Positions 39,544 to 49,223 of a DNA stretch of 64,000 nucleotides are shown here, piece by piece; position 1 is the first letter of the stretch, and the number at the start of each line of letters is the position of its first letter. The stretch covers positions 4,774,001 to 4,838,000 of the forward strand of contig NZ_CP136600.1 in assembly GCF_032911225.1 (NCBI RefSeq), written 5' to 3'. Source of the stretch: Thalassotalea fonticola (GTDB lineage Bacteria; Pseudomonadota; Gammaproteobacteria; Enterobacterales; Alteromonadaceae). The position numbers and the translations under genes are program-made. The notes beneath the pieces were generated by a model. The model was not told the origin of the DNA. It was given only the letters and a program-made list of their open reading frames with translations, and ran no database searches.

Positions 39544-39572
39544 AAAAGAGCGGCAATGCCGCTCTTTTTTTT
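39544..39572 (+). terminator. Rho-independent terminator of the DUF885 gene
   Basis: AGAGCGGC (39547-39554) and GCCGCTCT (39558-39565) form an 8-bp stem around AAT, followed by a run of eight T. The tandem repeat begins at the last T. Confidence 0.92.
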
Positions 39573-39821
39573 AATTCACGGATGACTTAACTTAGAATTA
39601 CCAAGGATGGTGCAAATTCTGTAATTCACGGATGACTTAACTTAGAATTACCAAGGATGGTGCAAATTCTGTAATTCACGGATGACTTAACTTAGAATTA
39701 CCAAGGATGGTGCAAATTCTGTAATTCACGGATGAATTAACTTAGAATTACCAAGGATGGTGCATATTCTGTAATTCACGGATGGATTAAGTTAGAATTG
39801 CTCTGAAAGGTATACATTTTG
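39572..39821 (+). repeat. Tandem 50-bp hairpin repeat, four good copies and a degraded fifth
   Basis: Units start at 39572, 39622, 39672, 39722 and 39772. Each unit has hairpin A (TAATTC-ACGGAT-GAATTA; perfect in the fourth copy, one mismatch in the first three). It also has an outer stem AGAATT/AATTCT enclosing hairpin B (ACC-AAGGAT-GGT). The array fills the gap between the DUF885 terminator and lpxH. It is a pure tandem repeat without spacers, so it is not a CRISPR. It shares its architecture, but not its stem sequences, with 2184-2308. Confidence 0.92.
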
Positions 39822-42870: not shown

Positions 42871-43725
42871 TTAGCTATGAAAGTCTTCACAAGCAATTAG
42901 TGTATTTTCGATTAAGCTTGCTACAGTCATTGGTCCAACCCCACCGGGTACGGGAGTGATAAATGCAGCTTTTTCTTTAGCAACAGTAAACTCTACATCC
43001 CCAACCAATTTGCCAGTATCTAAACGGTTAATACCAACATCGATCACTATTGCGCCTTCTTTGATCCAATCGCCAGGAATAAACTCAGGTTTACCTACGG
43101 CTACTACAACTAAGTCTGCTTGACGAATACGAGCTTCTAGGTTTTTAGTAAACCTATGAGTAGTCGTGGTTGTACAACCTGCTAGTAATAGCTCTAGCGT
43201 CATCGGTCGACCAACAATATTTGATGCGCCAACAACAACTGCTTCTAAACCGTGAGGTTTAACACCTGTTGATTCAATAAGGGTCATGATCCCCTTAGGA
43301 GTACAAGGACGAAGACCAGGCTGACGTAAGCATAACTTACCAACATTAGCCGGGTGGAAACCGTCAACATCTTTATCTGGATGAATATGCTCAATGATCA
43401 AATTAGCATCTAGCTCTTCAGGTAATGGCAGCTGCACTAAAATGCCATCAATCTCATCGTCATTATTTAATTGATCAATTAAATTGTATAATTCTTCTTG
43501 CGTAGTTGTTGCTGGTAAGTCGAATGATTTAGAAATAAAGCCAACCTCTTCACAAGCTCGGCGCTTACTGCCAACATAAACTTCAGAAGCAGGGTCGCTG
43601 CCAACAAGAACAACGGCTAAACCAGGCGCTCTTTTTCCGTCATTTAAACGTTGTAGTACTTTCTCTTTTACTGAATGTCTAATTTGCTTGGCAATTTCCT
43701 TACCGTCAATCAGTTGTGCTGTCAT
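42871..43725 (-). CDS. folD: Bifunctional methylenetetrahydrofolate dehydrogenase/methenyltetrahydrofolate cyclohydrolase
   Basis: FolD interconverts 5,10-methylene-, methenyl- and 10-formyl-tetrahydrofolate with NADP. The 284-residue product has the catalytic-domain segments [20 protein letters not shown] and [14 protein letters not shown]. The Rossmann domain has [13 protein letters not shown] and the C-terminal signature is [18 protein letters not shown]. It is convergent with cysS; the tRNA cluster lies on its other side. Confidence 0.97.
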
Positions 43726-43971
43726 TGTTTTGAAGTTTACCTTAATTAAATTGGCCGTATTTTCTCATAAAATTATTGCTGGTGATAGCTAAATGGCTAG
43801 GTATTCATTATTTTTAAGCTAATGTTTTGTTAACTGCATCGAATGGCGACTTTATAATTAGCTATCCCAACGAAAATATTACCTGAACTGTTTGTTTATT
43901 GTTAAATGTTGTTGGTTTTTGCACAATATGCTGTAAAAACAACCGAACGATCATTTTTTTATAAAAAGTGT

Positions 43972-44004
43972 TTGACGCCATACGGTCAGCTAGGTAATAT
44001 GCGC
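43972..44004 (+). promoter_or_regulatory. Strong sigma-70 promoter of the tRNA cluster
   Basis: TTGACG (43972-43977), a 17-nt spacer and TAATAT (43995-44000) are followed by a GC-rich discriminator GCGC. This is the pattern of stringently controlled stable-RNA promoters. It lies about 35 nt before the first tRNA. Nothing else is evident in the gene-free stretch 43726-44042. Confidence 0.85.
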
Positions 44005-44042
44005 ATCCGTTAACGCAGTGATGTGTTAGCCAGAAAATCTGT

Positions 44043-44119
44043 CGGTGATTAGCGCAGCTTGGTAGCGCACTTGGTTTGGGTCCAAGGGGTCGCAAGTTCG
44101 AATCTTGCATCACCGACCA
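44043..44119 (+). tRNA. tRNA-Pro (anticodon TGG), copy 1
   Basis: The 77-nt gene folds as a full cloverleaf. The acceptor CGGTGAT/ATCACCG carries discriminator A and encoded CCA, the anticodon stem CTTGG/CCAAG holds TGG, and the T-arm is GCAAG-TTCGAAT-CTTGC. It is identical to the copy at 44374-44450. Confidence 0.97.
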
Positions 44120-44177
44120 CTTTTCTAACTTGTTAATTTAAAAATTTTATTTTAACAAACCCTGTAAAGGTTGTTTT

Positions 44178-44254
<77 letters not shown>

Positions 44255-44261
44255 TACAGTG

Positions 44262-44337
44262 GTGGCTATAGCTCAGTTGGTAGAGCCCCGGATTGTGATT
44301 CCGGTTGTCGTGGGTTCAAATCCCATTAGCCACCCCA
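44262..44337 (+). tRNA. tRNA-His (anticodon GTG)
   Basis: The cloverleaf has acceptor GTGGCTA/TAGCCAC, anticodon stem CCGGA/TCCGG with GTG, and encoded CCA. The genomic G at 44261 can serve as the G-1 characteristic of tRNA-His, pairing with discriminator C. Only seven bases separate it from tRNA-Arg, so they share a transcript. Confidence 0.97.
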
Positions 44338-44373
44338 TTTTTCTACACCTTGTAGTTAAATAGAAAAGAATAT

Positions 44374-44450
44374 CGGTGATTAGCGCAGCTTGGTAGCGCA
44401 CTTGGTTTGGGTCCAAGGGGTCGCAAGTTCGAATCTTGCATCACCGACCA
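44374..44450 (+). tRNA. tRNA-Pro (anticodon TGG), copy 2, head of the 3'-end repeat array
   Basis: This copy is base-for-base identical to the gene at 44043-44119, including CCA. Its last 18 nt (44433-44450) are the first bases of the repeat array that follows. Confidence 0.97.
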
Positions 44451-44950
44451 CTTCTTTATCTCTCGCAATACTCAAAATCGTAATAATATTCTAAACATCA
44501 AATATTCGAACTTGCGAAGCAAGTTTTAAAATTTTGTCTGGAACAAAATTTCACGCACTTGTGCGCCCGAAGGGGAAAATACAGGACGTATTTTATACAT
44601 CTTGCATCACCGACCACTTCTTTATCTCTCGCAATACTCAAAATCGTAATAATATTCTAAACATCAAATATTCGAACTTGCGAAGCAAGTTTTAAAATTT
44701 TGTCTGGAACAAAATTTCACGCACTTGTGCGCCCGAAGGGGAAAATACAGGACGTATTTTATACATCTTGCATCACCGACCACTTCTTGAAAAGTCTGAA
44801 ATATTCGACGTTAAAACCTTACTTCAATAAAATACTTATTCGAACTTGTGAAGCAAGTTTGATAAATTTGTCTGGAACAAATTTAAACGCATGTAGTGCG
44901 ACAAAGGGGAAAATACAGGATGTATTTTATTCATCTTGCATCACCGACCA
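44433..44950 (+). ncRNA. rtT-like array: three ~166-bp repeats each carrying the tRNA-Pro 3' end
   Basis: ATCTTGCATCACCGACCA, the last 18 nt of tRNA-Pro with CCA, starts at 44433, 44599, 44765 and 44933. Repeats one and two (166 bp each) are identical; the third (168 bp) has diverged. Each unit can fold into AACTTGC-GAA-GCAAGTT, AAATTTTGT-CTGGA-ACAAAATTT, CGCAC/GTGCG and AAAATAC-AGGAC-GTATTTT before the tRNA-like tail. In the third unit the second hairpin shortens by one base on both arms (AAATTTGT/ACAAATTT) and stays paired. The layout parallels the E. coli tyrT 178-bp repeats that yield RtT RNA. The call as a processed RNA is inference; the repeats are observed. Confidence 0.65.
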
Positions 44951-45073
44951 CTTCTTCTTTTAATTACACCAAAAAATTTTCATGTCGTAATTTAACAAAT
45001 TACATGCAAATTAATTCCATCAACCTTTCTATGCGTTATTGACTAAGTAATCAGAAAACTTTTTACAATACTC

Positions 45074-45142
45074 TCGTTTCTCGTTTCTCGTTTCTCGTTT
45101 CTCGTTTCTCGTTTCTCGTTTCTCGTTTCTCGTTTCTCGTTT
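45074..45142 (+). repeat. Heptanucleotide tandem array (TCGTTTC)n, nine copies and a partial tenth
   Basis: Perfect TCGTTTC units run from 45074 to 45136, then TCGTTTT. This is the reverse complement of the GAAACGA array at 49140. It lies in the 643-bp gene-free stretch 44951-45593, which otherwise holds only the tig promoter and leader. A GTAATTT/AAATTAC hairpin near 44993 is also present. Confidence 0.95.
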
Positions 45143-45368
45143 TAGGCCCTTAATTACAAAATAATTCAATTTTCTTTATTTTACTGTTGTTTTTAAATTC
45201 TCTGCCCATATATAAACGCATAGCGTGACTTATTAATAGGCTAAGTGGTTGTTAGTAAAAAGAACAATAACCTTACTAATTGTAGGCTCTACAGAGCAAT
45301 GCTTATAGTAAACCCATTTCAAAATGGTTTGAATTTACGATGAAGCAAATTAGTTACTAACTCAGCTA

Positions 45369-45397
45369 TTTACACCTGCGGTTAGCACCGCTATAAT
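45369..45397 (+). promoter_or_regulatory. Sigma-70 promoter upstream of tig
   Basis: TTTACA (45369-45374), a 17-nt spacer and TATAAT (45392-45397) are followed by TTCCGCG, a GC-rich discriminator. The tig start is at 45594, which implies a leader of roughly 190 nt. That leader includes a CGAAAG/CTTTCG hairpin near 45454-45479. No tRNA gene lies between. Confidence 0.75.
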
Positions 45398-45593
45398 TCC
45401 GCGTCACATTTTAATCGAGTCTATGTTAATTAGACGATAGAACATCTTTTTTGCGAAAGGTTACAGATTAATCTTTCGACTCATAATTCACTGTAAGGGT
45501 GGTTTATGGATAGGCAGTAAATATAGTGTTTGCTGGTAAATATATAGAGATGCATTAATAGGCGTTATAAACGTCAGAATTTGAGGTACAAAA

Positions 45594-46904
45594 ATGCAAG
45601 TTTCAGTTGAAACTACTCAAGGCTTAGAACGTAAAGTATCAATTTCTGTTCCTGCCGAAACAGTAGATGTAGAAGTAAAAAACCGTTTGCGTCAAATCGC
45701 AAAAACACAAAAAATCAACGGTTTCCGTCCTGGTAAAGTGCCACCTTCTGTAATTCAGAAGCGTTACGGCAAATCAGTACGTCAAGAAGTTGCTGGTGAG
45801 TTAATGCAACGTCACTTCGTAGAAGCAATCGTAGCTGAAAAATTAAACCCTGCTGGTCGTCCTGCATTCGTAGCAAAAAGCAACGAAGAAGGTAAAGAGT
45901 TAGAGTTTGATGCAACTTTTGAAATCTACCCTGAAGTAGAGCTTGCTGGCTTAGAAACAATTAAAGTTGAAAAGCCTGCTGTAGAAGTAACTGAAGCAGA
46001 CCTTGATGAAATGTTTGTTACTTTACAAAACCAACACAAAACTTGGAAAGAAAACAAGCGTAAAACTAAGAAAGGCGACAAGCTTACTTTAGATTTTAAC
46101 GGTCGTGTTGATGGCGAAGAATTTGAAGGCGGTAAAGCCGAAGCTTTCGAACTTGAATTAGGCGCTGGTCGCATGATCCCAGGTTTTGAAAAAGAAGTTA
46201 CAGGCATGAAAGTTGGCGAAGAGAAAACTATCTCTGTTACTTTCCCTGAAGATTACCATGCAGAAAACCTTAAAGGTAAAGATGCAGAGTTTGATATCGT
46301 AGTTCACAAAACTGAAGGCCCAGTGCTTCCAAAAATTGATGAAGAATTTGCGAAATTATTCGGTGTAGAAGAAGGCGGTATTGAAGCCCTTCGCGCTGAA
46401 GTTCAAAAGAATATGGAACGTGAATTATCTCAAGCTGTTAAAGCTAAAGTTAAAGAACAAGTACTTGAAGGTTTAGTTTCTGCAAATGAAATTGATACTC
46501 CAAAAGCATTAGTTACTCAAGAAGTTGATGTGTTACGTCAACAAGCTATGCAAAAATTTGGTGGTCAAATGGATCCTAAGAACATGCCACAACTTCCTGC
46601 TGAAATGTTCCAAGAACAAGCAGAACGTCGTGTTAAAGTTGGCTTGTTATTAGGTGAAGTGATTAAAACCAACGAACTAAAAGTTAATGATGACAAGGTT
46701 AAAGAGTTAATCGAGTCAGCAGCATCTGCTTACGAAGATCCAAAAGAAGTGGTTGATTACTACATGGGTAACCAAGAACTTCTACAACAAATGCAACACG
46801 TAGCTCTAGAAGAGCAAGCGGTTGAATTGATCTTAGAAAAAGCAGCTGTTAAAAACAAAAAAACAGCTTTTAAAGACATCATGAACCCACAAGCTAACGC
46901 TTAG
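45594..46904 (+). CDS. tig: Trigger factor
   Basis: Trigger factor is the ribosome-bound chaperone that meets nascent chains. The 436-residue product has the N-terminal ribosome-binding domain with the signature [17 protein letters not shown] (about 41-57). The FKBP-type PPIase domain (about 150-245, [20 protein letters not shown] and [16 protein letters not shown]) and a helical C-terminal chaperone domain follow. It leads the conserved tig-clpP-clpX-lon-hupB-ppiD order and is closed by a terminator just before clpP. Confidence 0.98.
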
Positions 46905-49129: not shown

Positions 49130-49139
49130 ATGCTTGTTA

Positions 49140-49223
49140 GAAACGAGAAACGAGAAACGAGAAACGAGAAACGAGAAACGAGAAACGAGAAACGAGAAAC
49201 GAGAAACGAGAAACGAGAAACGA
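49140..49223 (+). repeat. Heptanucleotide tandem array (GAAACGA)12
   Basis: Twelve perfect GAAACGA units run from 49140 to 49223, beginning ten bases after the clpX terminator. The unit equals the reverse complement of the 45074 array. The open frames across it are low-complexity artefacts. Confidence 0.97.

What the first reader, a model, noticed from the sequence alone, without database searches (positions are those of the whole stretch)
44374..44950. tRNA-Pro followed by three ~166-bp repeats that each end in the tRNA 3' end (rtT-like locus)
The last 18 nt of tRNA-Pro(TGG), including CCA, recur at 44599, 44765 and 44933 with periods of 166, 166 and 168 bp. Known parallel: the E. coli tyrT locus has 178-bp repeats each carrying the tRNA-Tyr 3' end and gives the small RtT RNA. 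I know of no such array on tRNA-Pro in this lineage. The first two repeats are identical (recent duplication or gene conversion), while the third is old and keeps its hairpins. A processed, CCA-ended RNA family is inferred. Because it sits behind a stringent-type promoter, it may be a growth-rate-coupled regulator.
Basis: partly seen in the sequence, partly recalled or inferred. Interest (0 to 1): 0.78.

Follow-up and report, generated by a model that had tools for sequence, protein, structure and literature searches.

The report
RrB-like tRNA-linked repeats behind tRNA-Pro
Three copies of a small folded repeat sit right behind a proline tRNA gene in a marine bacterium; they belong to the same family as E. 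coli repeats found behind tRNA and ribosomal RNA genes, one of which makes a small RNA that binds the regulator CsrA, so this array may tie growth rate to that regulator.

Summary
The array is real and where stated: tRNA-Pro(UGG) 44374-44450, then units of 166, 166 (identical) and 168 bp, each ending in that tRNA's last 18 nt. It belongs to a known kind, the tRNA-linked repeats (TLRs) of E. coli, which include RtT behind tyrT and RrA/B/F behind 5S rRNA. A covariance model from 23 hand-picked elements outside the window's genus finds the three units (E 1.5e-21 to 7.4e-20), all four E. coli RtT copies (1.8e-11 to 7e-10) and E. coli RrB (6.9e-23). Each unit is a covarying four-hairpin core set in the T-loop of a copy of the tRNA's 3' part; the right flank matches its own tRNA better than other isotypes in 46 of 57 elements. 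Two loops carry GGA, as in RrB, a published CsrA-binding sRNA; the genome encodes CsrA. Best reading: a transcribed, growth-coupled TLR array offering six GGA loops to CsrA. Transcription and binding here are inferred. Against a purely RNA-level view: most sampled cores lie away from tRNAs, some spread as dispersed copies, and at Ser loci a terminator precedes the element. New here: the family's breadth, and RrB-type GGA hairpins in tandem at a tRNA locus.

The parts
43972..44008 (+). promoter-like site TTGACG-17-TAATAT with G+C-rich stretch GCGCATCC (candidate growth-regulated tRNA operon promoter)
   Evidence: consensus scan, (number of sites not above shuffles); discriminator read
44043..44119 (+). 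tRNA-Pro(UGG), first gene of the operon
   Evidence: ARAGORN
44178..44254 (+). tRNA-Arg(UCU)
   Evidence: ARAGORN
44262..44337 (+). tRNA-His(GUG)
   Evidence: ARAGORN
44374..44450 (+). tRNA-Pro(UGG), last gene of the operon; source of the repeated 3' end
   Evidence: ARAGORN, Rfam
44451..44616 (+). TLR unit 1 (166 bp): spacer, inverted T-arm copy 44501-44517, H1 44509-44525, hairpin core, tRNA 3'-end copy 44599-44616
   Evidence: model R2 44486-44619, 78.9 bits, E 1.5e-21
44527..44595 (+). four-hairpin core of unit 1: H2 44529-44551 (loop CUGGA), H3 44554-44565, H4 44566-44574, H5 44576-44594 (loop AGGAC)
   Evidence: model R1 93.1 bits (unit 1 is in the training set); fold; covariation
44617..44782 (+). 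TLR unit 2, identical to unit 1; core 44693-44761
   Evidence: R2 E 1.5e-21
44783..44950 (+). TLR unit 3, diverged; core 44861-44929; tRNA 3'-end copy 44933-44950
   Evidence: R2 E 7.4e-20

Best explanation
The array is a tandem set of three tRNA-linked repeats (TLRs) of the RrB/RtT family. SHOWN: each unit is a conserved four-hairpin core set in the T-loop of a copy of the 3' part of the tRNA just upstream, with an inverted T-arm copy before it; the family is homologous to E. coli RtT and RrB. INFERRED: the units are transcribed by read-through from the tRNA-Pro operon (no intrinsic terminator was found between), cut behind the tRNA-like 3' ends by tRNA-maturing RNases, and released as short-lived RNAs whose amount follows tRNA operon output, hence growth rate. 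Their GGA loops (two per unit, six in the array) titrate CsrA weakly, as binding by RrB in vitro suggests. Copy number changes by unequal recombination between the tRNA 3'-end copies, which would explain the identical units 1 and 2 and the differing copy number in relatives.
For: Homology: R2 (23 elements outside the genus, no E. coli) hits only the three window units and the four RtT copies in 66 kb at E<=1, and E. coli RrB with 78.8 bits, E 6.9e-23. R1, built from 13 cores of the window's kind, hits RrB too (58.4 bits, E 1.1e-12) but not RtT; neither hits the E. coli proM operon. Structure: 26 of 37 pairs change on both sides, 87.3% of cells paired; no shuffle of 500 as high on four of five measures, 3 of 500 on the fifth. 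tRNA-specific ends: the right flank matches its own tRNA better than every other isotype in 46 of 57 elements (4 ties), 0 of 10,000 permutations. GGA in both loops in 116 of 137 distinct cores by single folds. No intrinsic terminator before the element in 15 of 15 tRNA-Pro(UGG) loci. One CsrA gene, 88.8 bits. RrB is transcribed by read-through, found as 173- and 115-nt RNAs and binds CsrA through loop GGAs (PMC8144298). Copy number varies in relatives.
Against: No expression data. At other loci an intrinsic terminator lies between tRNA and element (Ser 10 of 10, Glu 5 of 10, Arg(acg) 2 of 4; all 17 of 48), although RrB also lies behind one. 91 of 149 sampled cores had no tRNA 3' end within 250 bp; only 6 of those 91 share 12 nt or more with a tRNA 3' end of the set. 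Some genomes hold near-identical dispersed copies, which points to DNA-level spread. 8 of 58 tRNA-linked elements lie antisense. Six of 13 genus genomes read lack the element at this tRNA, so it is dispensable. [quoted passage not shown] coli were predicted not to bind CsrA. The models and the H2 pattern favour GGA, so these counts are partly circular; H5 in the pattern sample is not (22 of 28 by folds).
Confidence: 0.6

Rival explanations
1. A DNA-level repeat: a hairpin-rich, possibly mobile core (REP/MITE-like) that settles in hairpin loops, the tRNA T-arm among them, and goes along with duplication of the neighbouring gene's 3' end. Any RNA from it is a by-product.
For: Core matches in 93 of 274 class genomes and 158 of 246 family genomes (at most 18-20 candidates scored per genome, so copy numbers are lower bounds); 91 of 149 sampled cores away from tRNAs; 11 fetched near-identical copies of a unit of about 200 bp in G495; a core inside an IS110-like transposase frame (L106); elements in either orientation; terminators before many elements; rtT-like elements called BIMEs in PMC2965389 (passage).
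Against: Covarying stems with conserved GGA loops, and co-direction with the tRNA in 50 of 58 (not independent events), are more than a passive repeat needs; REP-like elements can covary too, so this is not decisive. No transposase was tied to the core; the one Y1-transposase gene of the genome has other-looking flanking repeats (by eye).
Confidence: 0.27
2. Scar or decoy of site-specific integration: the 18-19-nt copies (T-loop to CCA) are attachment-site copies left by integrases that target tRNA 3' ends.
For: The block T-loop to CCA is of the kind that tRNA-targeting integrases duplicate (general knowledge, recalled); in G006 an 8.36-kb stretch with a 415-aa phage-type integrase sits between tRNA-Ser(GGA) and its element.
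Against: No core lies between tRNA-Ser and the displaced element there among the matches (one match in G006); units of about 166 bp hold no gene; in E. coli rrnB the same arrangement is made with a 5S rRNA 3' end (by eye); the inverted T-arm copies and the conserved core are not explained.
Confidence: 0.04
3. Transcription terminator array of the tRNA-Pro operon: hairpin H1 followed by T-rich DNA ends transcription.
For: H1 (44509-44525) is followed by TTTTAAAATTTT; the scan found no intrinsic terminator on the + strand of 43700-45700.
Against: H1 itself fails the terminator criterion; six relatives keep the operon without the element; at Ser loci a separate terminator exists.
Confidence: 0.08

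Closest known systems
RrA/RrB/RrF, TLR sRNAs behind E. coli 5S rRNA (PMC8144298)
   Same: Same hairpin core with GGA in the loops of H2 and H5 and a 3' end copied from the gene upstream; on the rrnB locus R1 58.4 bits, R2 78.8 bits. rrnA and rrnD were not fetched.
   Different: Behind 5S rRNA and between two terminators; here behind tRNA-Pro, three tandem units, no terminator found between
RtT / rttR of E. coli tyrTV (Rfam RF00391)
   Same: Units downstream of a tRNA, tRNA 3' end at each unit's end, inverted T-arm copy, same order of hairpins
   Different: RtT lacks the GGA loops and its H2 aligns poorly; the window units do not match RF00391 directly
tRNA-linked repeats (TLRs) of E. coli, 22 at ten loci (Rudd 1999 as cited in PMC8144298)
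   Same: Defining 18-19-nt identity with the upstream tRNA or rRNA 3' end
   Different: The paper reports rrA/B/F homologues in Enterobacteriales; here in Colwellia/Thalassotalea-like genera (names) and at tRNA-Pro, where neither model finds an element in the E. coli proM operon
Photobacterium phosphoreum repetitive tRNA-Pro/His cluster (recalled, Giroux and Cedergren; not seen here)
   Same: Repeats of tRNA-Pro parts in the homologous operon, as recalled
   Different: Not compared; searches did not find it

Membership tests
[quoted passage not shown]
   18 of 18 nt in each of the three units
TLR (tRNA-linked repeats) | homology of the unit to known TLRs | tested here: met
   R2 hits window units, RtT x4 and RrB
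RrB-type CsrA-binding TLR | hairpin core with GGA in two loops | tested here: met
   R1 hits RrB, E 1.1e-12; loops at 44538-44542 and 44583-44587 in unit 1
RrB-type CsrA-binding TLR | RNA made and bound by CsrA | not testable with these tools
   no expression or binding data; a CsrA gene is present
RF00391 RtT | score at or above the Rfam gathering cut-off (45 bits) | tested here: not met
   no RtT match on 44370-45000 even at E<=10; related elements at other tRNAs reach 41.9 and 39.7 bits
REP/BIME-like repeats mobilised by a Y1 transposase (RAYT) | match between transposase-flanking repeats and the element | tested here: inconclusive
   one Y1 transposase gene; flanking repeats look different, judged by eye only

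The most novel reading that the evidence does not exclude
TLRs are a class-wide family of self-adapting elements: a conserved GGA-hairpin core repeatedly takes on the 3' end of whichever RNA gene it sits behind, so its RNA inherits that gene's promoter and processing signals. In this lineage the tRNA-Pro array works as a growth-rate-coupled CsrA sponge whose capacity is set by tandem copy number (none to three units, two GGA loops each).
Probability: 0.35. Interest if true: 0.72.

Novelty: new variant of a known kind. Interest (0 to 1): 0.55.

Why it matters
RtT and RrB were described from E. coli and its relatives. Here both fall into one covariation-supported family that also covers tRNA-Pro, Ser, Glu, Lys, Arg, Phe and other loci across gammaproteobacteria, with ends that follow the neighbouring tRNA. 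That makes two open questions testable: what TLRs do (does read-through RNA from tRNA and rRNA operons set CsrA activity to growth rate?), and how an element acquires the 3' end of its host gene. It also bears on the rrnB T1-T2 cassette of many plasmids, which carries one of these elements (PMC8144298).

Tried and rejected
Rejected: chance or misreading. A protein-coding repeat: the unit length of 166 is not a multiple of three, so the 87-aa ORF across units 2 and 3 is not a repeated reading frame. Carriage by plasmids or viruses: no match in the plasmid collection; the H2 pattern in 3 stretches of the viral contig collection, not followed. Integrase origin and terminator: see rivals. A tRNA-like acceptor/T-stem helix between inverted and direct copy as a general rule: arms pair better with their own partner than with swapped ones (48 co-directed elements, -13.0 versus -10.5 kcal/mol; 80 without a tRNA, -13.8 versus -11.6; 0 of 5,000 each), but the own partner is best in only 8 of 48 and 5 of 80, the 8 antisense elements show no such effect, and in the window's own units most pairs of that stem mismatch, so it is not part of the best explanation. 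The inverted copy is also the weaker half of the flank test: left arms beat all other isotypes in 29 of 57, 8 ties. Direct Rfam membership failed; and 51 families that are plainly wrong here (for instance sX4, 38.4 bits, on tRNA genes) score like RtT, so those RtT matches alone would prove little.

Rows dropped or picked: one search used 57 distinct of 58 tRNA-linked elements; one search used 136 of 149 (duplicates and short flanks out); one search used 48 distinct co-directed; one search used 137 distinct of 149. Samples S1, S3 and S4 are best-scoring model hits, not random ones. The 23 sequences of R2 were picked by hand for the full plan: 21 have a tRNA gene found beside them, L113 and L241 only tRNA-like ends; four are Pro-linked. 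The structure was fitted to the same alignment. One search stopped with an error after 12 of 13 loci; for the last (G005) one search shows 160 nt behind the tRNA, and one search lists no match near it; G013 (L313) could not be judged.

Literature: 10 searches used. The papers of Bosl and Kersten, Rudd, Egan and Landy, Giroux and Cedergren were not seen, only cited text or recall. No report of TLRs outside Enterobacteria and Pasteurellaceae was found; that is not proof of absence.

Full report
OBSERVATION. tRNA-Pro(UGG) 44374-44450 closes an operon Pro-Arg-His-Pro and is followed by three units ending at 44616, 44782 and 44950, each in the tRNA's last 18 nt. Units 1 and 2 are identical; unit 3 is 85% identical from the T-arm copy onward but not in its spacer.

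ANATOMY. Each unit has a spacer, an inverted copy of the T-arm (17 nt, 94%, at 44501-44517), a hairpin AACTTGC-GAA-GCAAGTT, then H2 (loop CUGGA), H3, H4 and H5 (loop AGGAC or AGGAU), then T-loop to CCA of tRNA-Pro. So the core sits in the T-loop of a 3'-end copy. Between units 1 and 3, H2 differs by two double changes that keep pairing, while H4 of unit 3 is damaged (read).

RELATIVES. A blastn search of the genus hit 9 of 15 genomes, behind tRNA-Pro or tRNA-Ser(GGA) and at two loci without a tRNA in the stretch (L011, L016). Behind the operon-end tRNA-Pro the element is present in 6 of 13 genomes read (G000, G002, G004, G007, G009, G012) and not seen in 6 (G001, G005, G006, G008, G010, G011); in G014 the contig ends, but another tRNA-Pro there has two copies. 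G006 keeps only a core-free copy of the tRNA 3' half. In a sample of 30 genera of the family, 27 of 30 stretches upstream of tig showed tRNAs and 3 of these 27 carry the element, the window's own among them. An alignment of 13 cores (A2, 11 from the genus) has 96.8% of cells paired and 10 of 24 pairs changed on both sides. Model R1 from it finds matches in 158 of 246 family genomes and 93 of 274 class genomes, with few candidates scored per genome; with 150 scored, 12 of 14 genus genomes, 0-14 matches each. In the window's genome there are seven at E<=0.01: the array (3), one behind tRNA-Ser(GGA), one 320 bp behind tRNA-Ser(UGA), and two with no tRNA in the 1.4 kb fetched.

tRNA-SPECIFIC ENDS. 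I sampled 149 cores: 30 best family hits, 30 of the 46 places of a pattern that sees only H2 (46 places in 15 of 59 genomes, none for the reversed pattern), 60 further family hits and 29 class hits. 58 of 149 have a tRNA 3' end within 250 bp (24 of 30, 7 of 30, 18 of 60, 9 of 29), 50 in the tRNA's direction and 8 opposite. In 57 distinct ones the right flank shares on average 14.2 nt with its own tRNA's 3' end against 5.1 with other isotypes; own beats all others in 46, ties in 4. The inverted copy on the left is less exact: 29 of 57, 8 ties. Amino acids seen: Pro, Ser, Glu, Lys, Arg, Phe, Tyr, Cys, Gly, Gln, Leu.

MEMBERSHIP. Rfam RtT matches several of these elements along its full length below its cut-off (41.9 and 39.7 bits, cut-off 45), but wrong families score alike in those calls, and the window units do not match RtT at all. 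I therefore built R2 from 23 hand-picked elements outside the genus; 26 of 37 pairs change on both sides. R2 finds the three window units, the four E. coli RtT copies and nothing else in 66 kb at E<=1, then E. coli RrB with 78.8 bits and nothing in the proM operon. R1 also finds RrB but not RtT. RF00391 itself hits 50 of 274 class genomes, 18 above cut-off; of the 18 loci fetched for those 18 genomes, 17 have a tRNA in the stretch and R2 has a match at E<=0.01 in 18 of 18, the weakest 18.2 bits (L180).

FUNCTION. PMC8144298 (end of the abstract, Introduction, first of two parts of the Discussion, and passages) describes TLRs as repeats whose last 18-19 bp equal the upstream tRNA or rRNA 3' end, says that the starvation role of RtT was retracted, and reports that RrA/B/F are transcribed by read-through, short-lived, and bind CsrA through GGA motifs in vitro. 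PMC4986893 (passages) reports RtT members near Asn and Lys tRNA genes in Actinobacillus. The window core has GGA in the two corresponding loops. Across 137 distinct cores both loops show GGA in 116 by single folds, and GGA lies within core positions 51-70 in 135 of 137, 43% expected after shuffling; the models favour GGA, and only H5 of the pattern sample is free of this bias (22 of 28). The genome has one CsrA match. No terminator precedes the element in 15 of 15 tRNA-Pro(UGG) loci, but one does in 10 of 10 Ser and 5 of 10 Glu loci. Transcription, processing and CsrA binding of the window array remain inferences.

DNA-LEVEL LIFE. G495 has 11 fetched copies of a unit of about 200 bp with shared ends; L106 has a core inside a frame with a weak IS110 transposase match (21.5 bits, below the cut-off of 29); L016 has a 20-nt inverted copy of the EF-Tu gene's 3' end near two cores (95% identity, 32.8 bits, best of 100 shuffles 28.3). 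In E. coli rrnB the core lies inside a second copy of the 5S 3' end (read). So the core spreads or is spread, and repeatedly lies in a copy of its neighbour's 3' end; how is open.

VERDICT. A real, known kind (TLR), here in a new lineage and locus, with RrB-type loops in tandem.

Noticed in passing
window 45072-45142 and 49139-49223: Heptamer arrays (TCTCGTT x10, AGAAACG x12). Behind this tRNA-Pro, 4 of 11 genus genomes checked have a heptamer array, each with a different heptamer.
   Followed up: partly
G007:C123:147370-147785, G006:C1:50717-51135, G011:C1:60953-61510, G002:C1:3758183-3758538, G004:C1:4286574-4286878: A second tRNA-His locus is followed by tandem copies of about 36 bp (the tRNA from about position 48 plus a few bases), period roughly 92-120 bp; no core match is listed there.
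   Followed up: no
L333 (G006:C1:3150000-3169900): An 8.36-kb stretch with a 415-aa phage-type integrase (PF00589, 77.8 bits) separates tRNA-Ser(GGA) from its TLR element.
   Followed up: partly
L106 around 1501-1570: A core lies inside a reading frame with a weak IS110 transposase match, in the loop of an imperfect palindrome (palindrome by eye).
   Followed up: partly
L198-L208 (G495): Eleven dispersed copies of a MITE-like unit of about 200 bp (TTAACGTGAA...GAGAGTT) that contains the core.
   Followed up: partly
window 39572-39799 and 2184-2308: Tandem repeats of 50 and 53 bp whose units hold hairpins such as ACCAAGGATGGT, again with GGA at the apex (by eye).
   Followed up: no
L016, behind tuf in G002: Two cores behind an EF-Tu gene with an inverted copy of 20 nt of the gene's 3' end.
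   Followed up: partly
L054 (G041): Three tandem core-free copies of the tRNA-Pro 3' half behind the same tRNA operon.
   Followed up: no
L015 (G009), upstream of tRNA-Ser(GGA): Tandem copies of the 5' part of the tRNA with its upstream region, the mirror case of the 3' copies (by eye).
   Followed up: no
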